60,917 nt of DNA from Verrucomicrobiales bacterium. GTDB taxonomy: Bacteria; Verrucomicrobiota; Verrucomicrobiia; Verrucomicrobiales; DEV007. A program made the translations under genes and the position numbers. The DNA lies in NCBI GenBank assembly GCA_016795505.1, contig JAEUHH010000087.1, forward strand, positions 1 through 60,917, written 5' to 3'. Shown here one piece after another: positions 37,325-60,622 of this stretch. How positions within the stretch are numbered: the stretch's first letter is position 1; each line of letters opens with the position of its first letter. The notes beneath the pieces are model-generated. The model ran no database searches. It worked only from the letters and a program-made list of their open reading frames with translations, and was not told the origin of the DNA.

Positions 37325-37513
37325 TCAGGCCTTCACGCCGAGCTTGGCGAGGATCTTCTCCATCAGGCACCATTTGGTGAAGGCGGACTGGAGCAGGTTC
37401 GCCCCCACGAAGGCGGTGAACCAGAGCCAGTTCGGATGCACGTAATGGGCCAGGGTCAGCGACGCGAGGATGAAGGTCCCCGCGATCGCCCGGATGCAGT
37501 CGTTCATTTTCAT
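37325..37513 (-). CDS. DUF2892 (YgaP-like) small membrane protein
   Basis: A 62-residue protein with two hydrophobic helices separated by a short loop (IRAIAGTFILASLTL and WFTAFVGANLLQSAF) and then FTKWCLMEKILAKLG, the usual end of DUF2892. It lies downstream of the RND gene on the same strand, 43 bp after it. A role is unknown; the family often accompanies rhodanese domains. Confidence 0.85.
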   Translation of the reverse strand: MKMNDCIRAIAGTFILASLTLAHYVHPNWLWFTAFVGANLLQSAFTKWCLMEKILAKLGVKA

Positions 37514-37556
37514 AGTCGTATCAGGCTGGGTCAGGAAGCCGTCGGGCTGGTGGCCA

Positions 37557-40811: not shown

Positions 40812-40813
40812 TT

Positions 40814-40857
40814 CCGATCCAACAGGGTAGGGTCTCCGATCCAACAGGGTCTGATCG
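40814..40857. repeat. 22-bp tandem repeat family, locus 5
   Basis: Two adjacent units (40814-40835 and 40836-40857) start identically with CCGATCCAACAGGGT and differ in their last bases (AGGGTCT and CTGATCG). They fill almost the whole 48-bp gap between the membrane-fusion stop and the RND start codon, so they are transcribed within the efflux operon. Confidence 0.88.
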
Positions 40858-40859
40858 CG

Positions 40860-41873: not shown

Positions 41874-42002
41874 GGAAACAATATTCCTTTACGGCGATAT
41901 TCGACGGACTGCCAGCGGATTCCTTTCAGCGGGCCCGATTTTCCTCCATATCATCATTTGCGCGCGACATCCACCGGCGGTTCGCCAGCGTAAGCCAAGC
42001 CG

Positions 42003-43442: not shown

Positions 43443-43913
43443 CACACTGAGCAGCTTGTCGACGTGCTCGGCCGGCTTCACCAGCGGGAAGACCGCGACG
43501 ATGCGGCCCTCCTCATCGATGACGAAGGTGGTCCGCTCCGTGCCGAAGTAGGTCTTGCCATACATCGACTTTTCCACCCACACGCCGTAGTCCTGCACGA
43601 GTCGCTGGGCTTCGTCGCTGATCAGAGGGAAGGGCAGACTGTATTTGTCGATGAATTTCCGGTGCTTCTTCACCGGATCGATGCTGACGCCGAAGACGGC
43701 GGCCCTTTTCCCGATCTCGCCCCAGGCATCGCGGAGCCCGCAGGCCTGGGTGGTGCAGCCGGGCGTGTCGTCCTTCGGGTAAAAATAGAGCACCACCTTG
43801 CGGCCCCGCAGGGCGTCGAGGCTGACGATGTCCCCGTCGGCGTAGGGCGCGCCAGCGACGGGGGCGGAAAAAGACGGGGCGGGATCGCCGGGTTGTGGAC
43901 GGGCATTCATCAT
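43437..43913 (-). CDS. bcp: Bcp/PrxQ-type peroxiredoxin
   Basis: A 158-residue thiol peroxidase. The peroxidatic Cys lies in YPKDDTPGCTTQACGL and the resolving Cys is five residues later, the PrxQ pattern. It reduces hydroperoxides with thioredoxin. Convergent with phrB. The Met at 43913 or 43910 can start the protein. Confidence 0.93.
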   Translation of the reverse strand: MMNARPQPGDPAPSFSAPVAGAPYADGDIVSLDALRGRKVVLYFYPKDDTPGCTTQACGLRDAWGEIGKRAAVFGVSIDPVKKHRKFIDKYSLPFPLISDEAQRLVQDYGVWVEKSMYGKTYFGTERTTFVIDEEGRIVAVFPLVKPAEHVDKLLSVL

Positions 43914-44006
43914 GCCACAATACGCCTCGGCCGGCGGGATCGACGCGGGATTTTTCCCCTCGTCGAGCCGACCACCGCCCGACTGCCTCTCCCCCACCCT
44001 GCCACC

Positions 44007-44612
44007 GTGACCACCGCGAACAAGATCACCGTCGCCCGCCTGCTGCTGATCCCGGTCTTTGTCACGCTGGCCGCGTATTACTCCCGCAGCATCGCCCAGG
44101 GAGCGGAGGAGATCGGCTTTCGCATCGCCGCGCTGGCGGTGTATGCGCTGGCCTCCATCAGCGACGCCGTGGACGGCTACATCGCCCGGCATTACAACCA
44201 GCGCACCCCGTTTGGGCAGGTCGTCGATCCATTGGCCGACAAGCTGCTGCTGCTGTCCGGCGTCATCACCCTCAGCGTGACCCACTGGCACGTCGGACTG
44301 CCCATCTGGTTCGCCGCCCTCGTGATCGCCCGCGACGCCGTCATCGTGAGCGGCGTCCTGATCATCAAGTATTTCACCGGCACCGTGAAGATGGGACCGA
44401 AGCTCAGCAGCAAGGTGTGCACCTTCCTCCAACTCAGTTGCGTGGTCTGGGTGCTGCTCGATTTCCGCAATCCCGAGCATCCCCCGCTCGGCCTGTCGAT
44501 CCTGATCGGCGCGGCAGCCCTTTTCACCGTCATTTCCGGCGCCCAATACATCCTCGAAGGCATCCGCCAGCTCAAAGAAGGCGGCCACACCAGCCCGCCG
44601 GCGGGCGCGTGA
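44007..44612 (+). CDS. pgsA: PgsA-type CDP-alcohol phosphatidyltransferase
   Basis: A 201-residue membrane protein. The signature DG-x2-AR-x8-G-x3-D-x3-D is complete at residues 56-78 (D56, G57, A60, R61, G70, D74, D78), with about five helices. It probably makes phosphatidylglycerophosphate from CDP-diacylglycerol and glycerol-3-phosphate. The start is a GTG that gives the usual N-terminus TTANKITVAR; longer upstream frames are antisense to bcp. Confidence 0.92.
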   Translation: MTTANKITVARLLLIPVFVTLAAYYSRSIAQGAEEIGFRIAALAVYALASISDAVDGYIARHYNQRTPFGQVVDPLADKLLLLSGVITLSVTHWHVGLPIWFAALVIARDAVIVSGVLIIKYFTGTVKMGPKLSSKVCTFLQLSCVVWVLLDFRNPEHPPLGLSILIGAAALFTVISGAQYILEGIRQLKEGGHTSPPAGA

Positions 44613-44734
44613 GTCGGAAAAAGGCCGATTCCCTCCTTGTCTGGCCCCGGTCGGGGGGAGCCCAGCGCGAGAGGACTGGGGCGAGGAATTCCCAGTGGAA
44701 AATCGCCCGATTCTGGCCGAACACCCTTGGCAGA

Positions 44735-47281
44735 ATGAGTGCCGAGCCAAACCAATCGAAAACGGGCCCATCCACCGCCGAGAGAGCCCTTCTGAAGCGC
44801 CCCGACCTGGTGTTGCGGGTCGGATTCGTGGGAAATTGCAAGCTCCCCGAAGACCCTGACGAAAAAATTCACGCATCGCTCTCCGAGATTTTCCGAATCA
44901 TGGCCCATCGGCTGGCCGCGATCTCCCCATCTCTGGAAGAGCCGCCTTTCCCTCCCAATTTGCCCATTGCCATGTTCGAATTTTTCTCGGAAAAATTCCC
45001 CCGGCTGCATCTCGTGTCCGGCCTGGCGGAGGGAGCCGATGCTCTGGCGGCAGATCTCTTTCTCGATCTGAAAGAGAAATCAAAAGGCGAACCCGTCACC
45101 CAGCACTCCCAGAGCGCGGTGATCGGCTTTCCCTATGCCGCCTATCGAGACAGTCGTCCCCCGGCTCATCAGCGTGAATTCGATCGACTCGCGCAGGACT
45201 GCACCCATGTGCTGGAACTCGACGGCCCTGCAAGGCCCTACCCGAACGCAGACAAAAAGAAGGACCATCAGTTGGACAAGGATCGCCGCGCCCGGGCCTA
45301 TCGGGCCCAGACCGAACTGATTCTGCGGAATAGTGACATCCTCGTCGCGGTGGCAGACCGGTCGAAAGACGCCCTCGCCGGCGGCACCCTGGAGGCCGTG
45401 CGATCCGCGCAGGGCTTTCGGCTGCCGGTGGTATTTGTCGAGCTGATTACAGCGTCCAAAGACTCCGAAACGAAAGACACGTCCGCCACCCAGACCGTTC
45501 TCGTTTTAAAAGCGGTCAAACCGACATTCATCCAACCTGACGAGACCTTGGAGGGCGCCCTGTCGGCAGATTATCATGTTGAAGGCGTCACCGAGTCTAT
45601 CAAAAAGAAAATCGAAGAATGGATCGGCATTCTGGTCGCGGGCCCGGCGATCAGTTTGTTGAGAAAGCACGAGGGCGTTGAAGAGCCCGGCGTTTCCAGC
45701 AATTCCAAGGTTCATCTGAAGAAGCAGTTGGACTACCTGAATGAATACTTCTACCGAAGGGAAGTGCCAGAAGTGATGATGAAGAAGGGAAAAGAGGACC
45801 GGCGTCCATCCTGGCAGGAGCGATTTTGGAAATACTTCGGGGAACGAATCGAGAAAATTGGCCCCAGTTTGATAGGGGCGGCGGAAAGTGTCAAAGAATG
45901 GGGCTGGGCCTGGAAGCGTCTCACCATCGAGTTGGGTCCGGACGCGAAGAACCGGCTCGCCGAGTTCGACGCGCTGCGCCGGAAAGAGCGGGATCGGATC
46001 GCGCGCCTCAGCCACGGAGGTTCCGAGCCTACTCCATCGCCCGAGCGTGCGAATTCAGGAAACTCACATGAGTCCAATCGGCGCATTCTTTCGAACGAGG
46101 ACGATCGGAAAAAGCGGTTGAAGGAGTTCGAAATCCCCGGGGTCAAGAAATGGCGGGACCGGGCGACGGCGTTGAGTTATCATTACGCCGGCCTCTACCG
46201 GGGCACCATCGTGGCCATCTACCTGCTGTCGGTGATCGCCGTGGCCCTCGCCGGAGTCAGCCTGCTCGTCCTGGGTGGCCAGGGCGGTCTGGGAGATTTC
46301 CGCGCTGCGGCCGGACTACACCCTTCTCCCACGGTGGCTGGGGCGCCGCCGCCCTCACCTGAGATGGGCGGCAGCCACGGAGAATCTCACCATTCGGGAC
46401 ACCAAAACGGCCCGCATCTGCCCGCCCTGCTCGTGTTGGCCTTCCTAAAAATCGGGTGCGTGCTGGGCATCCTCTGGCTGACCACCCTGGGCAACAGTCG
46501 CCGCTGGAACGACCGCGCCATCAATTACCGCTATCTCGCCGAGCGGCTCCGGGTGATGCATATTTTTCCGAGACTCGGCAGTTTCCAGCCACCCGCTGCC
46601 GGTGTCTCCCAGTCGGCCTCGCGGGCGATGGATCAGGGCATTTTCGATTGGTTGTTCGATGCCATCGTCCGCTCGGCACCGGTCAAGTGCTGGATGGTTG
46701 CCCGACCCAAATCCGGCTCGGGCTCTGGAGTCACCATCGTCAAGCCCACCCCGGAGATCGCAGCGGAGTTGGCGACCCTTTTCCTGGTGGATGCGCAGAT
46801 CGATTACCACAAAGGCAACCATGCAAAAATGCACCTGATGCACGAGGCGCTGGAGGCGGCCGGCAAACTCTTCAACATCGCCGTCGTCGCCATCGTAGCC
46901 CTGGATATCGGTCTGATTGCCTTTAAACTCACCCATCCGCCCGATGCGGTCGCGGGTGCGCTCCAGACGATCTCCGCCTGGCTGATTTTTCTCGCCGGCC
47001 TCCTGCCTGCGGTGGTGGCGGCCATCCATGGTGTCCGCTACCAGAGCGAATGCCAACGCCTCTCCGACCGTTCCCTGATGATGGCCCGCCTGTTGGATAC
47101 CCACGGAGACCGTCTGGACAACCTGCGCCATCTCATCGACCAGCACCTCACCAACCCCGCCGACGATCCCGGCAGTTGGACCGCCGAGGTCCTCCATGCC
47201 ACCGAGGCCTGCGCCCGCGACCTCATCGAGGAGGCCGCCGAGTGGACGGTGCTCTATTCCAAGGAAATCAACGAGCCGTAA
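44735..47281 (+). CDS. SLOG-like domain fused to a four-helix membrane (SLATT/2TM-like) region; candidate defence effector
   Basis: An 848-residue protein. Residues 26-235 look like a SLOG-type Rossmann domain: LVSGLAEGADALAADLF at 93-109 and GGTLEAVRSA at 216-225 are the expected phosphosugar- or nucleotide-binding loops. Residues 285-470 are mainly charged helices. Two TM pairs follow (490-514 with 562-586, and 711-731 with 745-765), the first pair separated by a His/Pro-rich loop. The C-terminus ends with EEAAEWTVLYSKE, resembling SLATT (SMODS/SLOG-associated 2TM effector) tails. Such domains are predicted to sense a nucleotide or NAD-derived signal and permeabilise the membrane. Codon use is less GC-rich than neighbours. 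No CD-NTase or TIR gene is adjacent. Confidence 0.75.
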   Translation: MSAEPNQSKTGPSTAERALLKRPDLVLRVGFVGNCKLPEDPDEKIHASLSEIFRIMAHRLAAISPSLEEPPFPPNLPIAMFEFFSEKFPRLHLVSGLAEGADALAADLFLDLKEKSKGEPVTQHSQSAVIGFPYAAYRDSRPPAHQREFDRLAQDCTHVLELDGPARPYPNADKKKDHQLDKDRRARAYRAQTELILRNSDILVAVADRSKDALAGGTLEAVRSAQGFRLPVVFVELITASKDSETKDTSATQTVLVLKAVKPTFIQPDETLEGALSADYHVEGVTESIKKKIEEWIGILVAGPAISLLRKHEGVEEPGVSSNSKVHLKKQLDYLNEYFYRREVPEVMMKKGKEDRRPSWQERFWKYFGERIEKIGPSLIGAAESVKEWGWAWKRLTIELGPDAKNRLAEFDALRRKERDRIARLSHGGSEPTPSPERANSGNSHESNRRILSNEDDRKKRLKEFEIPGVKKWRDRATALSYHYAGLYRGTIVAIYLLSVIAVALAGVSLLVLGGQGGLGDFRAAAGLHPSPTVAGAPPPSPEMGGSHGESHHSGHQNGPHLPALLVLAFLKIGCVLGILWLTTLGNSRRWNDRAINYRYLAERLRVMHIFPRLGSFQPPAAGVSQSASRAMDQGIFDWLFDAIVRSAPVKCWMVARPKSGSGSGVTIVKPTPEIAAELATLFLVDAQIDYHKGNHAKMHLMHEALEAAGKLFNIAVVAIVALDIGLIAFKLTHPPDAVAGALQTISAWLIFLAGLLPAVVAAIHGVRYQSECQRLSDRSLMMARLLDTHGDRLDNLRHLIDQHLTNPADDPGSWTAEVLHATEACARDLIEEAAEWTVLYSKEINEP

Positions 47282-47398: not shown

Positions 47399-48199
47399 TC
47401 ACGCCGCCGGCTCCGCCGGACCAGGGAACGCGGCCAGACAGAACAGCACCGGGCGGAAGCCCCGGATCAGGTTGCGGTACGACGGCCCCCTCCAGTCGCG
47501 AAAGGCCGAGCGGCACCCCCGGGGCGAGCAGTTCCACGAGCCGCCACGCACCACGCGAATCGAGGGGTCGCTCCCGGGAGTCTCGGCCGTGATCTCCGGG
47601 TCCTGCACCCCATCCTCTCTCAACACATACGGATGATCATGCCACCAGTCCCGGCACCACTCCCACACATTCCCATGCAGGTCCCGCAGCCCCCAGCCAT
47701 TCGGCTCTTTCTGCCCCACCGGATGCGTCGAGCCTTTTCCCAATTCCTCGCCATACCACCCCGCCTGTCTCAAAGCCGACTCGCCGTCTCCCGTATGATA
47801 CTCGCAGAGATGGCCCAGGCAGCCTTTCTCCGGCTCATCCGGCCCCCGACGGGCCCGCTCCCACTGCGCCTCCGTCGGCAGATCCACCCCCTCACACCCA
47901 GACGGCAACTGGGACCGCAAGTAGGGCGTCACCCAGAGCCAGCGGCAAGACGCGCCAGCCTCGTCCCAGGTCAGGTTTTCCGCCGGGTGAGTCGGGCGTC
48001 CTGGAAAGCCGTTCTCGTGCCCTGGTAAAAATGCCGCGAACTGCGCCTGCGTCACTGGAGTCTCCGCCATCCAATACAGCCGCGTGATCTCCACCCAGTG
48101 CACCAGCTCTTCATAGTTATGCCACCCGTTGACCCGGCCCATCCCCCGCGATCCCATCCGAAAGCGGCCCGCCGGTATGTAGCGAAGGCGCAGCTCCAC
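47399..48199 (-). CDS. Formylglycine-generating-enzyme/SUMF1-like protein
   Basis: A 266-residue protein with the FGE-sulfatase fold motifs: IPAGRFRMGS near the start, TPVTQAQF, DLPTEAQWERARRG, LRDLHGNVWEWCRDWW and RVVRGGSWNC...CRSAFR. Cys224 and Cys229 have the C-x4-C spacing of the copper-binding pair of true FGEs, although many family members are non-enzymatic. The start is uncertain: a GTG is used here, and the frame continues upstream with WTG. It converges with the SLOG/TM gene, with 117 bp between the stops. It could mature the sulfatase at 29.5 kb. Confidence 0.85.
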   Translation of the reverse strand: MELRLRYIPAGRFRMGSRGMGRVNGWHNYEELVHWVEITRLYWMAETPVTQAQFAAFLPGHENGFPGRPTHPAENLTWDEAGASCRWLWVTPYLRSQLPSGCEGVDLPTEAQWERARRGPDEPEKGCLGHLCEYHTGDGESALRQAGWYGEELGKGSTHPVGQKEPNGWGLRDLHGNVWEWCRDWWHDHPYVLREDGVQDPEITAETPGSDPSIRVVRGGSWNCSPRGCRSAFRDWRGPSYRNLIRGFRPVLFCLAAFPGPAEPAA

Positions 48200-49407: not shown

Positions 49408-49842
49408 ATGTTGCGCGGTATTTCCCCCCTGCTTTCCCCCGACCTGCTCGCCACTCTGTGCCGGATGGGTCACGGCGACACGATCGTGCTCGCCGATGCC
49501 CATTTCCCCGGTCACTCGGTCAATGCCCTGACGCTCCGGGCCGATGGCCTAAAGATCGCGGACTTGCTCGATGGCATTCTGCCCCTGTTCGTGCTCGACG
49601 ACTTCATCCCCGATCCGGTGGCCATGATGGCTCCGGTGCCGGGCGACACGGCCGATCCAGCGGTGGAGGCCACCTATCGGGCCGTGATCGACCGCCAAGC
49701 ACCCGGCACCGCACCCATCGCTCATCTGGAACGCTTCGCGTTTTATGAGAAAGCCCGCGGCGCCTTCGCCATCGTCATGACCGGCGACACGGCCAAATAC
49801 GGAAATCTGCTGCTCACCAAGGGCGTCACTCCGGTCGCGTGA
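49408..49842 (+). CDS. RbsD/FucU-family sugar mutarotase
   Basis: A 144-residue protein with the family start LLATLCRMGHGDTIVLADAHFPG (catalytic His) and the C-terminal TGDTAKYGNLLLTKGV block, which favours the fucose mutarotase (FucU) branch over RbsD. It converts anomers of L-fucose or a related sugar. Its stop overlaps the start of the next gene (GTGA), so the two are an operon. Confidence 0.9.
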   Translation: MLRGISPLLSPDLLATLCRMGHGDTIVLADAHFPGHSVNALTLRADGLKIADLLDGILPLFVLDDFIPDPVAMMAPVPGDTADPAVEATYRAVIDRQAPGTAPIAHLERFAFYEKARGAFAIVMTGDTAKYGNLLLTKGVTPVA

Positions 49843-51590
49843 GGTTGATTCATCCATCCTCCGGCTTTCGGCTCGGCGTGGCTTTGCTGCTGCTGGTGCC
49901 GGTGTCGCCCTCCCGATCGGCCGAGGCACCGGCCACGGCGCCAACACCGGCCTCGGTGGCCCGGGCCGAACGCCTCCGCAGTTATTGGGAACGCACCGAC
50001 TTCCCCGCGCGCATCGACTCGGTGCGCGTGACCGCCGATCGCATTCACTTCGCCATCCACGCCGCGGCGCCGCCTTCGGGAACAGCCCTGCACCTCGCCG
50101 AGATTCGCCCTCACGAGGATGTGACCCAGCCGCCGCAAGGCCGCTATCCCCGGGCCTTCGCCCTGCCGGTGCGAGGGGCGGATGGCGCGCTGGCATTCGA
50201 CATCCAGCGAGTCCTGCCGGTCTACGACCAGATTTTCTCCAAATGGGCTGTGATTGCCCGCTCCGCAGACCCACAAGCGCCAGACACTCTGCTCAGCCAC
50301 GCTGTCCACGGCACCGACCTGACTGCCGCTGCGGCGCGCCCGGACCTGCCGCCGGTCACCGCCCGGACCAAAAAGGGACTTGCCGGCATCCACCCCGATC
50401 CCGCGCTTTTCCCCGATCTGGTGGAACTGGGCATCGGCCATCTGACCCACAACATCACCCTCGGCAGCCTGCTCCGGGAGAAGGCCGGCCCCGACACGCT
50501 GTCGCACGACTACGCGGGGCGTACCTACCATTTTGCCAAAGCCGGGGTGGCGACCATCGACCGCGTCACGTCCTTCGCCCATCAGCACGGCATCGTCGTA
50601 TCGGCGATCATCCTGGTGCCTAACCTGCCGGATCGGCAAAGCTGGGCCGGCCGGGTGCTGACCCACCCAGAGGCCCACCCCTCCGGCATTTACAGCCTCG
50701 CCAATGTGGCCACCTTCGAAGGCATCACCCACTACGCGGCCGCGATGCGGTTCCTCGCCGAGCGCTACAGCCGCCCCGACAGTCCGCTCGGCCGCATCGC
50801 CCACTGGATCATCCACAACGAAGTGGACTCCGGCTGGGTCTGGACCAACGCCGGCCACCAGCCCGCGGCGGTGTATCTCGACGACTACGCCAAGTCCATG
50901 CGCATCGCCTACCAGGCGGTACGCAGCTACGATCCGCTGGGAAAAGTCCACATCTCGCTGACGCACAACTGGACCCGCTCCCACCTGCCCAAAGACCCGC
51001 GCTTCTTCCCCTCGCGTCACCTGCTCGGCCTGCTGAACCGCCTGTCCCGTCTCGAAGGCGACTTCGAATGGGGTCTGGCTTTTCACCCCTACCCGCAGAG
51101 CCTCTTCCACCCCAGGACTTGGGAGGACGTTGGCGCGCGCAACGACCCCGACTCGCCCTACATCACCTTTCGCAACATCGAAGTGCTCGACCGCTGGATG
51201 CAACAGCCCGCCTATCGCTATCAGGGAAAGACTGTGCGGACCATCCTGCTTTCGGAACAGGGATTTCACACTCCGGACACCTCCGAGACCTCACAGGCCA
51301 CCCAGGCGGCGGCGCTGGCTTATGCCTGGAAGAAGATCGCCCCGATCGCATCGATCGAGGCATTTCACTATCATCGCTGGATCGACCACGAGCGCGAAGG
51401 CGGCCTCAACTTGGGACTCTGGACCGTGAAACCCGGCACCATCACCCTGCCTTTGGCGAAAAAGAAAAGCTGGGAGGTCTTTCGCGCCCTCGACACTCCC
51501 GGCGAAGCGGCCGCGGTGGAATTTGCAAAGCCGATCATCGGCATTGAGGACTGGAGCGGGATCGCTCTGCCACCCGCTCCGGTCCCGTGA
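49839..51590 (+). CDS. Secreted TIM-barrel glycoside-hydrolase-like protein (DUF5722-like)
   Basis: A 583-residue protein with a signal peptide (about 1-28). After a beta-rich N-terminal part, a TIM-barrel region shows WIIHNEVDSGWVWTN and ILLSEQGFHTPD, each with a Glu at the end of a strand as in clan GH-A catalytic pairs. The start is a GTG overlapping the FucU-like gene. The last 75 bp are repeated downstream at 52276-52350, beyond a hicBA insertion. Substrate unknown; linkage to a mutarotase suggests a fucoside or similar. Confidence 0.72.
   Translation: MRLIHPSSGFRLGVALLLLVPVSPSRSAEAPATAPTPASVARAERLRSYWERTDFPARIDSVRVTADRIHFAIHAAAPPSGTALHLAEIRPHEDVTQPPQGRYPRAFALPVRGADGALAFDIQRVLPVYDQIFSKWAVIARSADPQAPDTLLSHAVHGTDLTAAAARPDLPPVTARTKKGLAGIHPDPALFPDLVELGIGHLTHNITLGSLLREKAGPDTLSHDYAGRTYHFAKAGVATIDRVTSFAHQHGIVVSAIILVPNLPDRQSWAGRVLTHPEAHPSGIYSLANVATFEGITHYAAAMRFLAERYSRPDSPLGRIAHWIIHNEVDSGWVWTNAGHQPAAVYLDDYAKSMRIAYQAVRSYDPLGKVHISLTHNWTRSHLPKDPRFFPSRHLLGLLNRLSRLEGDFEWGLAFHPYPQSLFHPRTWEDVGARNDPDSPYITFRNIEVLDRWMQQPAYRYQGKTVRTILLSEQGFHTPDTSETSQATQAAALAYAWKKIAPIASIEAFHYHRWIDHEREGGLNLGLWTVKPGTITLPLAKKKSWEVFRALDTPGEAAAVEFAKPIIGIEDWSGIALPPAPVP
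51516..51590. repeat. 75-bp direct repeat, left copy
   Basis: The last 75 bp of the TIM-barrel gene, including the stop codon, are nearly identical (one mismatch) to 52276-52350. The two copies flank a 685-bp hicBA segment. The left copy is the one used by the intact gene. Confidence 0.95.
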
Positions 51591-52363: not shown

Positions 52364-53002
52364 TCAGAAACCGCGCATGAGCACCTCAGCCTCGCCGCTG
52401 AGACGCTCCCTGATCATGCCCTGGAGGCGCTGGAGACCGCGGCGGATGCGGGCCTTCACCGTGCCGAGCGGGCTGTTCAGCCGGTCGGCGATCTGGCGCT
52501 GGGTCAGACCTTCGAAGTAAGCCATCTCGATCACTTCCCGCTGCTCCGGCGACAGTTCGACCACGGCGCTCTCGAGGATCTGACGGGCGTCGGACAGGAA
52601 AACCTCGTCGCGACCGCTGGCCTGGGCCTCGGGCAGTTCGATCTCCTGTCGCGACTCGTAGCGGTCGTGCATGGCGGACCGGCGCTGGACGCTGCGGACC
52701 CGATCGATGGAGCGGTTCCGGGTCGTGGTGCAGATCCAGGTCACCAGCGTGCCCTTGGTCGGCTCATAGCTGTCGGCTTTCTGCCAGACGGACAGCAGGA
52801 CATCGTGGGCGACATCCTCGGCATCCTGGGCATGGTTCAGGACTTTGTAGGCGGTGGAGAAAATCAGCGGCGAATAGCGGTCACAGAAGGCATCGAAGGC
52901 GTCGTGATCGCCCGAGGCGATGCGCTGCATCAACTGATGGTCTTCCTCGCGGCTGGAAGCAGGAGCGGAGGAGGTGGAAAGGGAGGCGGGTGCGGTGTTC
53001 AT
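52364..53002 (-). CDS. ECF sigma factor (SigK-like)
   Basis: A 212-residue sigma-70 protein. Region 2 is at about residues 25-95 (LMQRIASGDHDAFDAFCDRY, AEDVAHDVLLSVWQKA) and region 4 at 145-205 (SPEQREVIEMAYFEGLTQRQIADRLNSP). It is divergent from the MerR-type gene; its ATG is 6 bp from one of three direct-repeat operators, implying control by that regulator. The layout recalls LitR/LitS and CarH regulatory pairs. No anti-sigma is encoded beside it. Confidence 0.92.
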   Translation of the reverse strand: MNTAPASLSTSSAPASSREEDHQLMQRIASGDHDAFDAFCDRYSPLIFSTAYKVLNHAQDAEDVAHDVLLSVWQKADSYEPTKGTLVTWICTTTRNRSIDRVRSVQRRSAMHDRYESRQEIELPEAQASGRDEVFLSDARQILESAVVELSPEQREVIEMAYFEGLTQRQIADRLNSPLGTVKARIRRGLQRLQGMIRERLSGEAEVLMRGF

Positions 53003-53007
53003 GATTT

Positions 53008-53142
53008 TGTCTAAATTTCGTCTAGAATGAGAACGAGACAGCGTCTTGCGCAAGAGATTTTTTCGACAAAATTTCGACATTTTGTCGTTTTGTTGATTCT
53101 TCGGACGGAATTTGGGCGTAATTATTCGACAAATTCAAGACA
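53008..53142. promoter_or_regulatory. Three 11-bp-spaced direct-repeat operators in the divergent promoter
   Basis: GAC(A/G)-N7-GACA occurs three times: 53065-53079 and 53128-53142 on the plus strand, and 53008-53022 on the minus strand. In each case the GAC units are exactly 11 bp apart. The left copy lies 6 bp upstream of the sigma ATG, the right copy 2 bp upstream of the MerR ATG, and the middle copy is part of a perfect 9-bp inverted repeat (CGACAAAAT...ATTTTGTCG, 53064-53087). The spacing of one helical turn suits a MerR/CarH oligomer. Confidence 0.75.
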
Positions 53143-53144
53143 AG

Positions 53145-54194
53145 ATGAGATTTTATTCCGTGTCCGACTCCTCCTCCTCTTCAGACCCCTCGCCTTCCGA
53201 CGAAGTATTCGGCATCGGCGAGGTGTCCCGCCTCACCGGTATTTCCGATCACGCCCTCCGCGTGTGGGAGCGCCGCTACCGCGTCGTCGATCCCGGCCGC
53301 ACCGAGACGCGGCGTCGCGAATACACCCGTGAAGACATTCGCCGACTCAGCCTGATCAAAATGCTGGTCGATGCCGGTCACGCCATCCGCCACCTCGCTC
53401 CGCTGGGCACCGAGGCGCTCGAAGCCCGGCTGCGCGAGACCCAGCCGGCCGGAAATGGCAACGGCCCCGCCGAAGTGTCCTGGACAGCCGGTCCCACCCG
53501 GGTCGCCTTCGCCGGCAGCCTGTCCCGCGATGTGCTGCGGGCTGCCGCCGACGCGGGTCCGGGCCTGCAAATCGTCGGGGAATTCATCACCGCCGAGGAA
53601 TTGGGCAGCACGCTGCGACCCGGCGCCATCGATCTCGTGGTCGTCGAGTGCCCCACGGTGTTCGAGGAGGAAGTCGCCGCCATCCAGCAGCTCGTCGAGT
53701 CACTGCATGCCCGCCGGGCGGTCATGATCTATCGCTTTGCCAAAACCCAGGCCCTGCAGCCGGCCGACAAGGACATCCGGTGCATCACCGCCCTGCGCGC
53801 GCCGGTGACAGCCGACGAACTGCGTCTCGCCTGTCTCGCCGATGCCCAGCCGGCCCGGGCGCTGGCGAGACGAAGCCAGACCGGCACTGGCGAGACGGCC
53901 TTCCCCGCTCCGGCCGGCGTGATCGACCTGCCGCCACGCCTCTTCAACGACCGGCAACTCGCCCGCATCGCCCGGCACTCCTCGGTGGTGCAGTGCGAGT
54001 GCCCCCAGCACCTGGCCAACCTGCTGGCCAGCCTCGCGGCTTTCGAAAGCTACAGCGCCGAATGCGAAAACCGCAATGAGGAGGATGCCCAACTCCACGC
54101 TTACCTCCACCGCGTCACCGCCGACTGCCGCGCGGAAATGGAAGCCGCCCTGAGCCACCTGATGGAGGTCGAGGGCATCTCGGTGGACGATTGA
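53145..54194 (+). CDS. MerR-family regulator with CarH-like Rossmann domain and Cys motif
   Basis: A 349-residue protein. Residues 20-90 form a MerR winged HTH (FGIGEVSRLTGISDHALRVWERRY). Residues 118-235 resemble the B12-binding Rossmann fold of CarH/LitR, but the cobalamin DxHxxG motif is absent. The C-terminal 80 residues hold a CEC motif (C284, C286) and C307, followed by a helix (LHAYLHRVTADCRAEMEAAL). The protein could sense redox or metal through the cysteines. It is divergent from the ECF sigma gene. Confidence 0.85.
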   Translation: MRFYSVSDSSSSSDPSPSDEVFGIGEVSRLTGISDHALRVWERRYRVVDPGRTETRRREYTREDIRRLSLIKMLVDAGHAIRHLAPLGTEALEARLRETQPAGNGNGPAEVSWTAGPTRVAFAGSLSRDVLRAAADAGPGLQIVGEFITAEELGSTLRPGAIDLVVVECPTVFEEEVAAIQQLVESLHARRAVMIYRFAKTQALQPADKDIRCITALRAPVTADELRLACLADAQPARALARRSQTGTGETAFPAPAGVIDLPPRLFNDRQLARIARHSSVVQCECPQHLANLLASLAAFESYSAECENRNEEDAQLHAYLHRVTADCRAEMEAALSHLMEVEGISVDD

Positions 54195-54307: not shown

Positions 54308-57300
54308 TCACTCGACCATCAACACGCCATTCATCACCATCCAGTGACCCGGAAAGGTGCATAAGTAGGGATAGCTCCCCTTCTCATTCGGCGCGTCAAA
54401 GTGGATCGTGAAGTCCGCCTTGGGATTCACCATGTCGGTCCAGACGACGACCTCATCCGATTTCGGCACGTAGTGGCGCGCGAGCGCCTCCGGGTCGGCG
54501 ATCATCAGATTGCAGAGTTCGCCCATCTTTTGCAGCGTGCCCGGCTTCGCCAGGAGCCAGTTGTGCGGGACGAGATCGGGGTTCACAAACGTGAGACTGA
54601 TGCGCTCTCCGGCTTTCACCCGAATCTCCTTCTGCACATATTGCAGCCCGAGCCCTGCCTCCACTGTGATCTGGCGGCCTTTCGATCCACCTGCCCACGG
54701 ATTCGGCTTTGCGGCGACCGGGGCGACCACGCCGATCTGGGCGGCGTGCAGGGTCTTCGGGATCTTCGTATAACCAGTGAAGTCGGTGTAGGCCCCGCCG
54801 AGCGCGTGCACGGTCAGGAAAAGATCCTGCCCCGTCGCGAGCCGTAGATGCACCTGTCCCGCCGGCACGATCTGCGGGATCTCGACAAAAATCGCCCTGC
54901 CCCCCTCGAGTCGCTGCACGCTGCGCACCTCGAGCGGATCATGCCCCGGCGTGTCAGGGTAACGAACCGAATACTCCGGCGATCCATAGGTGCCGCTGTA
55001 TTTGTAGGTCCAGCACTGGGCGAATGTCTCCGCGGCGACACTCGCGGATTCGGAGACGGGCTGATCAAAGCGGACGATGACGCCATTCTCCCGCGTCTCA
55101 AAGCCGACCGGCACGGGAGTGCCGCCAGTGAAACGGACCCGCTGGAAACAACCATCGAGCGGCGTGTAGGTGCCCCAGCCCTGCAATCCGGTCACGTAGA
55201 GCGCGCCATCCTTTCCGCTGAAACGCGCGCACTGGACGCCCGAGTCGAAGTTGCCGCTGATCTTCATCGCGGCAGCCTGCCAGCGGCCCTTCACCTGCTC
55301 GCGCATCACGAGCCAGGCACTGCCTCCGCCGGAGGACAGGTGCACGAGGTTGCCATTGCCTTCGAGCGGCCTCCACACCTCTCCTGAGATGAAGGCCTGG
55401 CTGCTCGCGGAGTTGTCCTCGCCACGCGGCAGATAGAGCAGCACCGGCTCGGGCGACTGGCCGTTCTTTGGTCCACCCGCGCCAAAATGGGCGCCCTCGT
55501 TCACGCCGAGTTCGACTTGGAAGACGCTCGTCGCCGGCGTCCAGTCGCCTTCCTGTGCACTCGTCGTCAGAAAACGGCCGTCATTTGAGATGCCGAGTCC
55601 GTTCGGATTGCGGAAGCCGGTCGCGAGCACGTCGAGACTACCTGCCTTGTCGATGCGGCAGAGCCCCTGGTTGCCCGAGGTGAAATACCAATTCCCCGCC
55701 GCATCGCGCTCGAGCCCGACGACGAAATCATGCCCGCCGGGCGAGGACTGCATCGCATTCGTCACACACTCGTAGTAGTCGGCCTCGTCGTCGCCGTTGA
55801 GGTCGTGGAGACAGGTGATCTGATCGCGGCCGAGGACGTGGATCTTCCCGTCGACGATTTTCATCCCGAGCGGCTGATGCAGACCGGTGGCAAAGCGTTT
55901 CCATCGCAATGTTTCGAGCGTTTCATCGATACCGCGCACCAGCCAGACCTCGCCCGTCATCGTCGCCACGGCGGCGCTGCCGTCTTCGAAGAAATCGTGC
56001 GCAGTGAGGAAAAAGATCGTGCCATGAGGGTTCTCAAAAGGGATCGTCAGCGTGTCGGTGGCGAAGGGCTTCTCCGATCCGACCGTTCCCTTCGTTTCGA
56101 GCCACTGCGGCCATTGCGCGGGACCACCCCGGGTCAGGGCGGCGAGTTTTTCCGAAGCCTCGCCACGGGCATTGAGGTATTGCGTCCTGCCGCCGGCTTC
56201 ATACGCGAAGACTACTTCTTTGCCATGCCGGTAAAAGCCGAGATAACGCCCCTCGCGTTTCTCATCCGACTTCGTCACCACCTCGCCCTCCATCGGGGCT
56301 CCGGCCATGAAACCGTGGCGGGCGTCGTTGAGCCTGACAAATCCACCTTTCCACGTCACCGGGAAGCTGAGCGTCTCCGGATTGAAAACCGCGGCGAGAT
56401 CGTCGTATCGGACACAGACGCCCTTTGGCAGGGTAAGGCCCGCGCCTTTGAAGACACCGCTGAAGAGATTGCCGTGATCACTTTCAGCCCAGCGCCCGTC
56501 TTTCCAGGTGACCTGGTCATTCTGGTTGCCCCAGTGTCCCTGCTGGCCGCCATCCATTCCGGGGAAATCGGGAATCAATTGCGGCAGCGGGCGATGGGTG
56601 AGAAAAGCGAGCGCCTGTTTGCCGTAAAAATCGAAGACGCGCTCGCGGTTCACGAATGCCTTCCAATGGCGGTTTTGCGACGGATCAAGCGGCTCCAGAG
56701 TCGGCTCGAAGGGCGCGGGAGCCGGAGCGCGCGGCCCGGTGAGGAGCGAGTCGAGATGGTCGAAATCCCACAGTCCAAGCGTGTTGTCCATGCGCTCGCG
56801 CGGGGTGTTGCCAGGTCGCGGCTTCATGACGCCGCGGGAGATCCGCACGTCGTCGAGGATTCCGTCACAGCCGATTCCGCCCTCGACGAGACGACCGAAG
56901 GCGAGTTGCTCCTTCTCCGCCTGTCTCAATTCGCCCGCCTTGCCGACGGGCTTTTCCAACACCTTCTTTCCATCGACCCAGAGCGTGACCAACTCCGCAT
57001 CGACGCTGGCGACGAAGTTGTGCCACTGGCCATCGCAGACATTGACGCCGGAATCAAAGTCTCCCCCGCGGCCGGGCATATAAAGCGCAAGCGTGCCGCG
57101 TCCGGCGTGGGTGTAGAGCTCCCAGTGCGTCCCGGCCGATTTCGGATTGCAGGCGACGAGGATGTTGTAGCGATCCTTCCCATCCAATTTGGCGCGGCAT
57201 TCAATCGAAAAGGGCAGCGTGTGGTAGTCCGCGCTGCCCTCGATGACGAGTCCGCCCGAGAGCGCCTTGCCGAAGTCGGCGCTCAGGGACGCGACCTCCG

Positions 57301-58273
57301 TTCCCTCCCGGATCGCCGGCCGCCCGCCGCCTCCGGCTTGCGGCTTCGCATCGTTCCAGGTGCGGTACTTCGGCTTCGCCGCGGGCGGCGCGTCGTCGAG
57401 TTGGGGGACGAGCCAGTTCAGTCCGTCGAGATTGTCGAGAAGTCGCCCCTCGGCGTCCTCGTCGGTGTGATTGAGGATGCCGACAGGACCGTTGTAGCCG
57501 CTGGCGCGGATCTGGCGCAAAACCTTCACATCCTCCGTGCCGACGCCGAGTGGCAGGATCTTGCGCCCTTTCGTGTCGCCGGCAATGTCCATGCCGTTGA
57601 GATTGAAACAGAGCAGATGCGGTTTCATCCGCTCGATCGCCGCCGGGAGCCTGTCGAGATGACTGTGCCCGTGGTGGAGATTGTAAACGATGCCGACATG
57701 GTCGGCTCCGTGGTTTTTTTTCAGATATTCGCAGACGGCGACGAGATTCTCCGGCTCACCGCCCCATCCGCCGTGATTGTAGAGTCCGAGTGGGCAACCG
57801 GCCTTGCGGGTCCGCTCGACGATGGGCAGCAGCCTCGTCGCTGCGGCTTTGACCCGTTCCTCCGGCGTCGCTTCGCTGCCACCACTGAGGGTGAGCCAGA
57901 TCTGCGGATGGAGGTCGTATTTCTCGAAAAGCCGGAAGGCCTCGTCGTGCGTGCTCCAGAAGGCGAAGAACTCGATACCGTGCTTTTGATAGGCAAGGAT
58001 CTCTCGTTCAAACTCGGCAACGTGCTCCTGCCGCCAGTCATAGGCGATTTTCTTAATGCCCATCTTCGCGACCATCTCGGCGCGTTCCTCGGGCGAGCGT
58101 TTCTTCGCATCGAACGGCACGATGCACCACGCGGCGAGGTTTGATTTGTCGAAGAGGTCCGCGGCTGCCACGGGAGAGCCGATCAAACAGGCAGGCAGAA
58201 TGATGGGGAGGAGGTGCCGTGGGAACCGTAAGGCGGAAAAGGCAATCATCTGAAGGGAGATTCTACTTTTCAT
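54308..58273 (-). CDS. Giant secreted TIM-barrel/LamG/propeller protein with C-terminal azurin domain
   Basis: A 1321-residue protein with a signal peptide (about 1-37, ending VAAAD). Residues 40-300 resemble a xylose-isomerase-like TIM barrel (KKIAYDWRQEH, GLYNHGGWGG, GPVGILNHTDED), 320-500 a LamG jelly roll (YHTLPFSIECRAKLDG, QWHNFVASVD), 520-700 a DUF6797-like block, and 740-1080 a six-bladed-type propeller (LGISNDGRFL). Residues 1195-1321 form an azurin-like cupredoxin: His1237 (VPHNW) and C1305, H1310, M1314 (CTFPGHWMVM), which have the same C+5H, C+9M spacing as azurin. Its electron partner is unknown. The ATG lies 5 bp after the amidohydrolase stop. Confidence 0.8.
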   Translation of the reverse strand: MKSRISLQMIAFSALRFPRHLLPIILPACLIGSPVAAADLFDKSNLAAWCIVPFDAKKRSPEERAEMVAKMGIKKIAYDWRQEHVAEFEREILAYQKHGIEFFAFWSTHDEAFRLFEKYDLHPQIWLTLSGGSEATPEERVKAAATRLLPIVERTRKAGCPLGLYNHGGWGGEPENLVAVCEYLKKNHGADHVGIVYNLHHGHSHLDRLPAAIERMKPHLLCFNLNGMDIAGDTKGRKILPLGVGTEDVKVLRQIRASGYNGPVGILNHTDEDAEGRLLDNLDGLNWLVPQLDDAPPAAKPKYRTWNDAKPQAGGGGRPAIREGTEVASLSADFGKALSGGLVIEGSADYHTLPFSIECRAKLDGKDRYNILVACNPKSAGTHWELYTHAGRGTLALYMPGRGGDFDSGVNVCDGQWHNFVASVDAELVTLWVDGKKVLEKPVGKAGELRQAEKEQLAFGRLVEGGIGCDGILDDVRISRGVMKPRPGNTPRERMDNTLGLWDFDHLDSLLTGPRAPAPAPFEPTLEPLDPSQNRHWKAFVNRERVFDFYGKQALAFLTHRPLPQLIPDFPGMDGGQQGHWGNQNDQVTWKDGRWAESDHGNLFSGVFKGAGLTLPKGVCVRYDDLAAVFNPETLSFPVTWKGGFVRLNDARHGFMAGAPMEGEVVTKSDEKREGRYLGFYRHGKEVVFAYEAGGRTQYLNARGEASEKLAALTRGGPAQWPQWLETKGTVGSEKPFATDTLTIPFENPHGTIFFLTAHDFFEDGSAAVATMTGEVWLVRGIDETLETLRWKRFATGLHQPLGMKIVDGKIHVLGRDQITCLHDLNGDDEADYYECVTNAMQSSPGGHDFVVGLERDAAGNWYFTSGNQGLCRIDKAGSLDVLATGFRNPNGLGISNDGRFLTTSAQEGDWTPATSVFQVELGVNEGAHFGAGGPKNGQSPEPVLLYLPRGEDNSASSQAFISGEVWRPLEGNGNLVHLSSGGGSAWLVMREQVKGRWQAAAMKISGNFDSGVQCARFSGKDGALYVTGLQGWGTYTPLDGCFQRVRFTGGTPVPVGFETRENGVIVRFDQPVSESASVAAETFAQCWTYKYSGTYGSPEYSVRYPDTPGHDPLEVRSVQRLEGGRAIFVEIPQIVPAGQVHLRLATGQDLFLTVHALGGAYTDFTGYTKIPKTLHAAQIGVVAPVAAKPNPWAGGSKGRQITVEAGLGLQYVQKEIRVKAGERISLTFVNPDLVPHNWLLAKPGTLQKMGELCNLMIADPEALARHYVPKSDEVVVWTDMVNPKADFTIHFDAPNEKGSYPYLCTFPGHWMVMNGVLMVE

Positions 58274-58278
58274 CGTTC

Positions 58279-59583
58279 TCAATCTTTGGTGTTTTCGTTG
58301 GACCGCGTATCCGCTCCTCTTCCCGCCAGACTCCCCGCCTTCACCACACCACCCTGCATCACGGCCAGCAGGTTGGCACGATCTTCGAGGATCGAGATGT
58401 CCCTCATCACATCGCCTGCCACCACCAGCACGTCGGCGAGTTTCCCCGGCTCCACCGACCCGATCTCGGCCTCCCGCCCCATCATCTTCGCACCACCGAG
58501 GGTGGCGCAGCGGATCGTATCAAGGACACTGAAACCGACGTAATCGACGAAGAAGGTCAGTTCCTGCGCGTAGGTGCCGTGGGGCGTCCAACCAAAGCCG
58601 TAATCGCCTCCAAGCCCCATTGTGCCCCCGGCCGCGAGCACCCGGCGGCAGCTCTCCGCTCCGGCTTCCAGCGTTTCCTGATGTCCGTCGATGACCTGCT
58701 GCGACAGACCGAATTCCTTGCCACGATCGACGCTGAATTTCTCGAATCCCAGCCCGGGGCACATCGGCACATGGCGCTTCAGCAGCAACTCCAGACATTC
58801 GTCGTCCATGAAAGTGCCGTGCTCGATCGCATCGTACCCGGCTTTCAACGCGTTGCGGATGCCCTCGGTGGCGCGGCAATGGCCGGTCACCTTCAGCCCG
58901 TGATTGTGCGCCGTCTGCACCACCGCGTGCATCTCGTCGAAGGTCATGCAGAGGGTGTGGTGATCATTGATGTCAGGCGAGGCGGCATCGCCGGTCGGGT
59001 AGGTCTTCACCCACTCGATCCCGTCCTTCACGAGCTTCCGCACCGCCTTGCGCGCTTCCTCGGGGCCGTTGACGATGAAAACAATGCCCTCCATGCCGAT
59101 CTTGCGGTAGTCCGGATTCCAATCCATCAGGCCGCCCGCGCCGCAGATCTCGCGCCCGCTCGCACTGAGGCGCGGCCCGGGGATCATGTCCTCCTCGATC
59201 GCCTTTTTCATCCAAACGTCGATGTTGTGCAGGCAACCGCCACTCCGCGCCGCCGTGTAGCCGCACTCCAGTGCCGTCTTCGCATTCACCGCCGACTGGA
59301 GCGTCACGTATTCCACCGGGAACTTGATGTCGAGATCCTGTAGTTCCGTGACATTGAAGTAGGTCAGGTGGATATGCGCCTCGATCAGACCCGGCAGGAT
59401 GGTGCCGCCTCGTGCATCGATCCGCGCCGCCCCCTCCGGCACCGGAGGGGCATCAGCCGCGGGGCCGGCGTAGGTGATGATCCCGTCCGTGACGACGACC
59501 GCCGCATCCGGCACCGGTGGCGCGCCCGTGCCGTCAATGAGTTGGCCATGGTGAATCAAAGTAGTGCCGGTCGCGAGTTTCAT
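58279..59583 (-). CDS. Amidohydrolase (imidazolonepropionase/prolidase-like)
   Basis: A 434-residue metal-dependent hydrolase with the HxH motif (IEAHIHLTYF), later His ligands (GHCRATEG and EHGTFMDD) and the final Asp in the LGGDYGFGW segment. The DGTGAPP N-terminal motif is typical of the PF01979 subgroup that hydrolyses cyclic amides or peptides. No signal peptide. It heads an operon with the azurin fusion. Confidence 0.9.
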   Translation of the reverse strand: MKLATGTTLIHHGQLIDGTGAPPVPDAAVVVTDGIITYAGPAADAPPVPEGAARIDARGGTILPGLIEAHIHLTYFNVTELQDLDIKFPVEYVTLQSAVNAKTALECGYTAARSGGCLHNIDVWMKKAIEEDMIPGPRLSASGREICGAGGLMDWNPDYRKIGMEGIVFIVNGPEEARKAVRKLVKDGIEWVKTYPTGDAASPDINDHHTLCMTFDEMHAVVQTAHNHGLKVTGHCRATEGIRNALKAGYDAIEHGTFMDDECLELLLKRHVPMCPGLGFEKFSVDRGKEFGLSQQVIDGHQETLEAGAESCRRVLAAGGTMGLGGDYGFGWTPHGTYAQELTFFVDYVGFSVLDTIRCATLGGAKMMGREAEIGSVEPGKLADVLVVAGDVMRDISILEDRANLLAVMQGGVVKAGSLAGRGADTRSNENTKD

Positions 59584-59734
59584 GGGGTGAGAGCGTAGCA
59601 TCCTCTCCAATCGGCGTCTTGAGCGTCAACCGCATTCTTTTGAAGAATCGCGGCGTACCGCCCTCCGCGGCCATACGCGATCGCGACCACGCCTTGCCGG
59701 ATCGCCCCTTTTCCCGCATCCTGTGAGCCTAATC

Positions 59735-60622
59735 ATGAAAAAACCCCGTCCCCTCTCAACCGCCGCCCTCGCCCTGCCCCTCATCGCCGCTCTCGGCTGC
59801 CTTTCCACTGGCAACGGAAGGGCCGACGAGGCGCTGAGCCGATCGCTGACTCACTTCGTGTCGTTCGACAAAGGCTTCACCGCCGATTTCTCCAAGGGCG
59901 ACAAGACCTGCTATCTCAAAAAGGGTGCCGAACTCGTTCCCTGCCAGGAAAGCGATGAAGTGAAGCTCGCTCCCGATGCCGGTCGTTTCGGCGGCGCGGT
60001 CTGGTTTCCCAAAAAAGGCGCCACCCGGCCGCTCTGGCTGGGCCAGAATGTGCTCGGCTACAATGACAAAAGCTGGAGCACCACCGTGTCCCTCTGGCTG
60101 CGGCTCACCCCCGATGAGGACCTCGAGCCCGGCTATTGCGACCCTGTCCAGATCGTTGGCGACGACACCAAGAAGGGTTTCATCTTTCTGGAATGGTCCA
60201 AGGACCACAATCCCCGCCATTTCCGTTATGCCATTCGTCCCCTGATCGAACTGTGGGATCCCCAGGGACTCGGCTGGGAGGGCATTCCCGATGAAAAGCG
60301 GCCCATGGTGCGGGTGCTCAATGCCCCCTTTTCCCGCGAGCGCTGGACCCACGCCGTCTTCACCCTCGACCGGATCAACGACAAAGCCGCCCCGCCCTCC
60401 GGCACCCTCTATCTCGACGGCAAGAAGCAGGGCCGCATCGACGGTCACGATCTCACCTTCGGTTGGGACCCCGCGTCCGTGAGCCTCGTCATCGGCGCGG
60501 CTTACGTCGGCCATCAGGATGACCTCGCCGTTTTCGACCGCGTCCTCACGGATGACGAAGTGACCCGCCTGTTCCAGTTGAAAGGCGGCGTGCGGGAGTT
60601 GATCCCCGCCGACAAGCCTTGA
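59735..60622 (+). CDS. Secreted LamG-domain protein
   Basis: A 295-residue protein with a signal peptide; the hydrophobic core ends at GCLSTG, which includes a possible lipobox-like LGC. The LamG-like core spans about residues 50-285 (YNDKSWSTTVSLWLRLTP, WTHAVFTLDRIN, DDLAVFDRVLTDDEV), the pattern of concanavalin-like carbohydrate-binding modules in Verrucomicrobia. No catalytic residues are visible. Divergent from the amidohydrolase gene. Confidence 0.85.
   Translation: MKKPRPLSTAALALPLIAALGCLSTGNGRADEALSRSLTHFVSFDKGFTADFSKGDKTCYLKKGAELVPCQESDEVKLAPDAGRFGGAVWFPKKGATRPLWLGQNVLGYNDKSWSTTVSLWLRLTPDEDLEPGYCDPVQIVGDDTKKGFIFLEWSKDHNPRHFRYAIRPLIELWDPQGLGWEGIPDEKRPMVRVLNAPFSRERWTHAVFTLDRINDKAAPPSGTLYLDGKKQGRIDGHDLTFGWDPASVSLVIGAAYVGHQDDLAVFDRVLTDDEVTRLFQLKGGVRELIPADKP

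What the first reader, a model, noticed from the sequence alone, without database searches (positions are those of the whole stretch)
54308..58273. Five-part secreted protein ending in a complete azurin domain
TIM barrel, LamG, DUF6797-like block, beta propeller and azurin-like cupredoxin are joined in one 1321-residue protein. All four type 1 copper ligands are present with azurin spacing (H1237, C1305, H1310, M1314). In comparable Planctomycete/Verrucomicrobial giants the redox module, when present, is usually cytochrome c. A copper module here would couple an extracytoplasmic sugar-active protein to electron transfer.
Basis: partly seen in the sequence, partly recalled or inferred. Interest (0 to 1): 0.75.

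Follow-up and report, generated by a model that had tools for sequence, protein, structure and literature searches.

The report
Blue-copper-tipped propeller oxidoreductase, PVC bacteria
This is a large secreted bacterial protein that joins a sugar-type TIM barrel, a lectin domain and a six-bladed propeller to a real blue-copper (azurin/auracyanin-like) domain; relatives swap the copper domain for a heme domain, so it is most likely an uncharacterised periplasmic sugar-oxidising enzyme with its electron acceptor built in.

Summary
TIM barrel, LamG, DUF6797, propeller and cupredoxin are all confirmed by profiles or by AlphaFold models with mean pLDDT 89-91. The C-terminal domain superposes on auracyanin A at 1.6 Å over 118 residues and keeps all four type-1 copper ligands, which are complete in 107 of 108 homologous domains. 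The family is not a one-off: full-length orthologues occur across Verrucomicrobiota, and planctomycete relatives carry both a heme c and the azurin. One small clade nested inside the copper clade has replaced the azurin with a cytochrome c. The propeller is six-bladed with a PQQ-sugar-dehydrogenase-like fold. It conserves that family's catalytic His and Arg positions (H848, R888) and usually Asn (N889), but PqqC is absent from the host. Related propeller cassettes are fused to, or adjacent to, 3-keto-disaccharide hydrolase and ThuA domains. The TIM barrel has lost its metal ligands. Best reading: a secreted carbohydrate dehydrogenase (possibly of the 3-keto-glycoside type) with a built-in blue-copper acceptor. 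Catalysis, cofactor and substrate are inferred, not shown. New variant of a known kind.

The parts
54308..58273 (-). whole gene, 1321 aa, ATG start, TGA stop
58160..58273 (-). putative signal peptide, residues 1-38 (cleavage after ...PVAAA inferred by eye)
   Evidence: sequence; no signal-peptide program available
57374..58159 (-). xylose-isomerase-like TIM barrel, about residues 39-300; canonical metal ligands replaced (Y165, N198, N224, L267)
   Evidence: Pfam; model; Foldseek YcjR; VIA UlaE Z 19.8; ligand mapping
56804..57301 (-). LamG / concanavalin-like domain, about residues 325-490
   Evidence: Pfam; model; neurexin/laminin/perlecan matches
56186..56392 (-). DUF6797 domain, residues 628-696 (conserved block about 520-700)
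   Evidence: Pfam
55124..56074 (-). six-bladed beta-propeller, about residues 734-1050
   Evidence: model; PQQ sugar dehydrogenases 2ism Z 20.1, 3a9g Z 19.6, 3das Z 18.9; NHL propellers Z 21.6
55730..55732 (-). H848, aligned to the sGDH catalytic base His144 (133/136 conserved)
   Evidence: role from PMC6881810
55607..55612 (-). R888-N889, aligned to sGDH Arg228-Asn229 (R 136/136, N 115/136)
   Evidence: role from PMC6881810
55778..55804 (-). DxNxDxExD acidic loop, residues 824-832, calcium-type motif, near-invariant
   Evidence: calcium binding inferred
54779..55096 (-). beta-sandwich between propeller and cupredoxin, about residues 1060-1165 (WxYxYSxxYGSPE motif)
   Evidence: model; conservation
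54311..54682 (-). type-1 copper (auracyanin/azurin-like) cupredoxin, residues 1198-1321
54563..54565 (-). Cu ligand H1237
54359..54361 (-). Cu ligand C1305
54344..54346 (-). Cu ligand H1310
54332..54334 (-). Cu ligand M1314
58279..59610 (-). amidohydrolase gene directly upstream, same strand, ends 5 bp before the ATG; same neighbour family seen in 15 related loci
   Evidence: Pfam; neighbourhood

Best explanation
A secreted, probably periplasmic, multidomain oxidoreductase. The DUF6797-plus-propeller core is proposed to bind and oxidise a carbohydrate (hydride transfer helped by H848 and R888-N889, as in soluble glucose dehydrogenase, with a cofactor not yet identified). The electrons are passed to the C-terminal blue-copper domain, which hands them to the respiratory chain in place of the cytochrome c used by relatives. 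LamG would hold glycan, and the metal-free TIM barrel would bind or process the keto-sugar. SHOWN: domains, complete copper ligands, copper/heme exchange between relatives, conserved His/Arg. INFERRED: catalysis, electron path, sugar substrate, 3-keto chemistry.
For: (1) Copper domain: PF00127 above cut-off; auracyanin A E 1.5e-12; model Z 19.0, 1.6 Å over 118 residues; ligands 107/108. (2) Redox exchange: L028, L030 and L033 keep TIM-DUF6797-propeller but end in CxxCH instead of azurin and lie inside the copper clade; planctomycete homologues carry a heme domain (TIGR02603 above cut-off in L101 and L112) plus the azurin; other DUF6797 propellers have only heme. (3) Propeller: Foldseek's best match is 2ism, a putative glucose dehydrogenase (E 3e-12); hhalign to a GSDH profile 85%, E 6e-6, aligning H848, R888 and N889 with the sGDH catalytic residues; H 133/136, R 136/136. 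A Catenovulum propeller that matches ours (5e-30) also matches GSDH at 24.9 bits against a cut-off of 25. (4) Sugar theme: same cassette fused to 3-keto-disaccharide hydrolase and/or ThuA; in Rufibacter a propeller-azurin gene lies directly behind a 3-keto-disaccharide hydrolase gene; the TIM barrel alone sits with Gfo/Idh/MocA and ThuA genes in Spirosoma.
Against: No activity is known for any member. PqqC is absent from G000, the sGDH lysine region is not recognisable, and P0001 scores nothing against PF07995, so the cofactor is unknown. The PDB profile search with the propeller found only NHL-type propellers, a fold that is often non-catalytic; gluconolactonases score nearly as well as dehydrogenases. 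No coordinates were available, so the Cu-to-propeller distance could not be measured.
Confidence: 0.5

Rival explanations
1. The propeller is a non-catalytic scaffold or glycan-binding platform (NHL-like); the azurin is only a tethered electron shuttle serving a separate enzyme of the same pathway.
For: Highest structural Z-scores are to NHL/Pizza/PknD propellers; the PDB profile search finds only these; no cofactor is identified.
Against: H848, R888 and a DxNxDxExD loop are near-invariant across 136 propellers with very different partner domains, which is more than a scaffold needs; the best Foldseek hit is a dehydrogenase.
Confidence: 0.25
2. A classical PQQ-dependent sugar dehydrogenase of the sGDH type that uses scavenged PQQ and azurin as acceptor.
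For: Fold, aligned catalytic His/Arg/Asn; E. coli-type Asd enzymes also work with external PQQ (own knowledge).
Against: None of the cassette-bearing genomes searched has PqqC, while the model rings in 8 other Verrucomicrobiota genomes; the PQQ-binding lysine region is not recognisable; no PF07995 hit.
Confidence: 0.12
3. The copper domain works in the other direction or in copper handling (donating electrons to an oxidative glycan-cleaving step, or buffering copper).
For: A cupredoxin alone does not say which way electrons flow (one search shows only the fold).
Against: Replacement by cytochrome c at the same position, and joint presence with heme c in planctomycetes, point to electron transfer rather than copper storage; an electron acceptor role is the usual one for such fusions (inference).
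Confidence: 0.1

Closest known systems
Auracyanin A/B and azurin (type-1 copper proteins, PF00127)
   Same: Fold (1.6 Å over 118 residues), four copper ligands and spacing
   Different: Here the C-terminal domain of a 1321-aa protein; below the azurin equivalog cut-off
PVC-type heme-binding CxxCH proteins (TIGR02604 propeller + TIGR02603 heme)
   Same: Related propeller in large secreted proteins with a terminal redox domain; often CBM/LamG and sulfatase neighbours (PMC5615132)
   Different: Copper in place of heme; scores 23.1 bits against the cut-off of 122.2
Soluble PQQ glucose / aldose sugar dehydrogenases (sGDH, PF07995)
   Same: Six-bladed propeller fold and aligned catalytic His/Arg/Asn
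   Different: No PF07995 score, PQQ lysine region not recognised, host lacks PqqC, fused azurin
Nitrous oxide reductase (NosZ)
   Same: Propeller followed by a cupredoxin domain; Foldseek E 1e-10
   Different: No superposition across both domains (rmsd 28 Å); six blades, not seven; type-1 site, not CuA (NosZ blade count and CuA from own knowledge)
Bacterial 3-keto-glycoside pathway (3-keto-disaccharide hydrolase/DUF1080, ThuA, Gfo/Idh/MocA, LacABC)
   Same: Related cassettes are fused to or beside its domains; pathway described in PMC9007349
   Different: No 3-keto-disaccharide hydrolase domain in this protein itself; the oxidising module would be of a different type

Membership tests
Plastocyanin/azurin family PF00127 (type-1 copper) | Profile score above curated cut-off | tested here: met
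   39.5 against 21.2 bits
Plastocyanin/azurin family PF00127 (type-1 copper) | His...Cys-x4-His-x3-Met ligand set | tested here: met
   H1237, C1305, H1310, M1314; conserved in 107/108
Plastocyanin/azurin family PF00127 (type-1 copper) | Cupredoxin fold | tested here: met
   2aan Z 19.0, 1.6 Å, 118 aligned
Plastocyanin/azurin family PF00127 (type-1 copper) | Binds copper, ~600 nm band | not testable with these tools
   needs expressed protein
Azurin proper (TIGR02695 equivalog) | Score above equivalog cut-off | tested here: not met
   34.7 against 105.1 bits
Soluble glucose dehydrogenase (PF07995) | Six-bladed sGDH-type propeller | tested here: met
   2ism Z 20.1, 3a9g 19.6, 3das 18.9; NHL propellers score as high
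Soluble glucose dehydrogenase (PF07995) | Pfam GSDH score | tested here: not met
   not listed for P0001 at E<=1
Soluble glucose dehydrogenase (PF07995) | Catalytic His, Arg, Asn | tested here: inconclusive
   aligned by hhalign at 85% probability and conserved; no structural superposition of residues possible
Soluble glucose dehydrogenase (PF07995) | PQQ cofactor | tested here: inconclusive
   no PqqC in the host or in other cassette genomes; scavenging not excluded
PVC-type heme-binding CxxCH protein (TIGR02604) | Score above cut-off | tested here: not met
   23.1 against 122.2 bits
PVC-type heme-binding CxxCH protein (TIGR02604) | CxxCH heme motif | tested here: not met
   none in the ORF (L006)
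Xylose-isomerase-like metal-dependent sugar isomerase (PF01261) | TIM barrel fold | tested here: met
   UlaE Z 19.8; 29.8 against 31.1 bits, 33.6 in the six-frame search
Xylose-isomerase-like metal-dependent sugar isomerase (PF01261) | E/D/H/E divalent metal ligands | tested here: not met
   replaced by Y165/N198/N224/L267 (first three invariant)
Nitrous oxide reductase | CuA cupredoxin and CuZ propeller | tested here: not met
   type-1 ligand set; no common superposition
3-keto-disaccharide hydrolase (PF06439) | Pfam score above cut-off | tested here: not met
   14.7 against 26.8 bits on the LamG region; true hits only in relatives

The most novel reading that the evidence does not exclude
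DUF6797 plus propeller is an unrecognised class of periplasmic glycoside dehydrogenase, neither PQQ-linked nor Gfo/Idh/MocA, that makes keto-glycosides for fused keto-sugar enzymes (TIM, ThuA, 3-keto-disaccharide hydrolase) and uses interchangeable built-in electron acceptors: blue copper, heme c, or both in series.
Probability: 0.25. Interest if true: 0.85.

Novelty: new variant of a known kind. Interest (0 to 1): 0.58.

Why it matters
PVC bacteria encode dozens of giant secreted propeller/cytochrome proteins; a survey of freshwater Verrucomicrobia states that nothing is known about the functions of such cytochrome proteins (PMC5615132). This family gives a testable reading: the terminal module is an electron acceptor, since nature exchanges blue copper for heme at the same place and sometimes uses both. 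The fusions to 3-keto-sugar enzymes name a candidate chemistry. If right, it would add an oxidative, respiration-coupled route of glycan breakdown with the electron carrier on the same polypeptide, and it offers an optical readout (copper bleaching) for substrate screening.

Tried and rejected
Plus-strand reading: broken by stops. Classical PQQ enzyme with own PQQ synthesis: PqqC absent from host and cassette genomes (the first control was silent, the phylum search rang in 8 other genomes); the best PqqE-like hit is only 84 of 381 bits. Metal-dependent sugar isomerase in the TIM barrel: ligands lost. LamG as 3-keto-disaccharide hydrolase: E 0.033 only. NosZ homologue: same domain order but no superposition. 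Profile search of the propeller against PDB sequences gave only generic NHL propellers and marginal unrelated chains. Paper searches for azurin + Verrucomicrobia + propeller, and for DUF6797 or DUF7133, found nothing; a guessed DOI on 3-keto pathways is not held. The counts of copper versus heme come from a sample biased to close relatives (best 80 of 562 confirmed) and are not frequencies.
Full report
OBSERVATION. The finding's coordinates are right, but the gene runs on the minus strand: ATG at 58273, TGA at 54308-54310, 1321 residues. The plus-strand frame is broken by stops. Codon-position GC of 0.64/0.45/0.77 on the minus strand is that of a coding gene in a 65% GC window. Pfam finds a xylose-isomerase-like TIM barrel (81-267, 29.8 bits, just under the 31.1 cut-off), LamG (352-483), DUF6797 (628-696) and the copper family PF00127 (1202-1321, 39.5 bits against 21.2).

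STRUCTURE. Residues 501-1321 were modelled from 45 homologues: mean pLDDT 88.7, pTM 0.87. The cupredoxin (model 698-821) matches auracyanin A with Z 19.0, 1.6 Å over 118 residues, 28% identity; by sequence auracyanin A is also the nearest solved relative, E 1.5e-12. It is thus a type-1 copper domain of the auracyanin/azurin kind, not azurin in the equivalog sense (34.7 against 105.1 bits). Residues 734-1050 form a six-bladed propeller: highest Z to NHL-type propellers (21.6), then 2ism (20.1), 3a9g (19.6) and PQQ-bound 3das (18.9); Foldseek ranks the putative glucose dehydrogenase 2ism first, E 3e-12. Nitrous oxide reductase, which also joins a propeller to a cupredoxin, appears at E 1e-10 but with 28 Å rmsd, so only the domain order is shared. 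A further beta-sandwich lies between propeller and copper domain. Residues 36-500 were modelled at pLDDT 90.9: a TIM barrel whose first Foldseek match is the 3-keto-D-glucoside 4-epimerase YcjR (E 1.7e-9), with UlaE at Z 19.8, and a LamG domain. The packing between the two halves was not tested.

THE TIM BARREL HAS LOST ITS METAL SITE. Alignment with MJ1311 (3wqo) and, for three of the four positions, with 22 host-genome members of PF01261 puts Y165, N198, N224 and L267 at the places of the Glu/Asp/His/Glu metal ligands; the first three are invariant in 32 sequences. It should not be called a metal-dependent isomerase. The same variant barrel occurs alone in Spirosoma oryzicola (39% identity), in a cluster with a Gfo/Idh/MocA oxidoreductase, a ThuA gene and another sugar isomerase.

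FAMILY. Full-length relatives at 53-91% identity occur in the host's family and order, and further ones in Opitutae, Chthoniobacteraceae and Planctomycetota. Among distinct propellers collected here: 62 TIM-LamG-DUF6797-propeller-Cu; 21 DUF6797-propeller-Cu (this group includes proteins whose other N-terminal domains were not scored in this census); 18 planctomycete forms with a heme c domain before DUF6797 AND the C-terminal copper domain; 3 with cytochrome c in place of the copper domain; 14 with N-terminal heme only. The sample is biased to close relatives and gives no frequencies. TIGR02603 heme is above cut-off in L101 and L112. On a tree of 136 propellers the 18 heme-plus-copper rows are one clade (SH-aLRT 99), and the three C-terminal-heme rows lie inside the copper clade, so there copper was most simply replaced by heme (quick tree, no bootstrap). 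Copper ligands are complete in 107 of 108 domains. These exchanges are the strongest sign that the C-terminal domain is an electron-transfer module.

PROPELLER CHEMISTRY. A profile comparison with the GSDH family (85%, E 6e-6) aligns H848 with the sGDH catalytic base and R888-N889 with the two residues around the PQQ ketones (residue roles from PMC6881810). H848 is kept in 133 of 136 propellers, R888 in 136, N889 in 115, and an acidic DxNxDxExD loop (824-832) in nearly all. A Catenovulum propeller annotated as PQQ-dependent sugar dehydrogenase, next to a cytochrome c gene, links the two families, although N889 is Ser there. Against PQQ: P0001 has no GSDH score, the PQQ lysine region is not recognisable by eye, and PqqC, which rings in 8 of 289 Verrucomicrobiota genomes, is missing in the host and in the other genomes of that sample that carry the cassette. 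The cofactor is therefore open.

WHAT IT WORKS ON. In relatives the same DUF6797-propeller is fused to 3-keto-disaccharide hydrolase (L209, L212, L216), to ThuA (L160, L161, L163, L164, L175, L212) and to an FAD oxidoreductase (L174). In Rufibacter tibetensis a propeller-azurin gene without DUF6797 follows a 3-keto-disaccharide hydrolase gene by 2 bp, in a cluster with GH65 and GH28 genes. In the window an amidohydrolase gene ends 5 bp upstream of the start; this family, DUF6807, AraC-type regulators, sulfatases and PSCyt/PSD genes recur near relatives. 3-keto-disaccharide hydrolases (DUF1080) are proposed to act on 3-keto sugars made by a periplasmic dehydrogenase, and one (BT2157) is characterised on 3-ketotrehalose (PMC9007349). 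The likeliest substrate class is thus a carbohydrate, possibly oxidised at C3; this is inference from fusions.

MECHANISM (marked). Shown: a protein with the stated domains and a signal-like N-terminus; intact copper ligands; exchange and combination of copper with heme; conserved His/Arg in the propeller. Inferred: secretion, sugar oxidation in the propeller, electrons to copper and then to respiration, TIM/LamG handling of substrate or product. About 0.5 for this whole reading.

COMPARISON AND NOVELTY. It works like the PVC propeller-cytochrome proteins, with copper for heme; a survey of freshwater Verrucomicrobia says nothing is known about the functions of the planctomycete-type cytochrome proteins (PMC5615132). 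No held paper describes DUF6797 or such azurin fusions; in PLSDB one propeller-azurin is simply named 'plastocyanin/azurin family copper-binding protein'. I file it as a new variant of a known kind.

Noticed in passing
L209, L212, L216 (DUF6797-propeller proteins of relatives): One chain can hold ThuA, 3-keto-disaccharide hydrolase, LamG, cytochrome c, DUF6797, propeller, PSCyt1, PSCyt3 and PSD2-5 (L212, 2365 aa): an apparent whole pathway on one polypeptide.
   Followed up: partly
window 57374-58159 (TIM barrel): Xylose-isomerase-like barrel whose metal ligands are replaced by invariant Tyr/Asn/Asn; a separate subfamily, also alone in a Bacteroidota gene cluster with ThuA and Gfo/Idh/MocA.
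   Followed up: partly
host genome C30:29381-31235 and C100:80877-83535 (L158, L159): Two further multidomain azurin proteins in the same genome: GDSL lipase-DUF7133 propeller-azurin and DUF7133 propeller-HEAT-azurin.
   Followed up: partly
window 52364-53080 (-) and 53112-54194 (+): ECF-type sigma factor and MerR regulator genes next to the finding, divergently arranged.
   Followed up: no
window 49839-51590 (+) and 47399-48199 (-): DUF5722 protein (E 1e-120) and an FGE-sulfatase-type domain protein.
   Followed up: no
window 59723-60622 (+): A second LamG (Laminin_G_3, E 2e-9) protein just beyond the upstream amidohydrolase, on the opposite strand.
   Followed up: no
window 37470-41993 (+) and 43895-47281 (+): Very long plus-strand ORFs (1507 and 1128 aa) without any Pfam match; each overlaps minus-strand ORFs, so they may be real unknowns or spurious readings of a high-GC region.
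   Followed up: no
L125 5019-6203 and 6371-9478 (Gemmataceae): The TIM barrel and the heme-DUF6797-propeller-azurin part are two adjacent genes instead of one, a natural split of the fusion.
   Followed up: no
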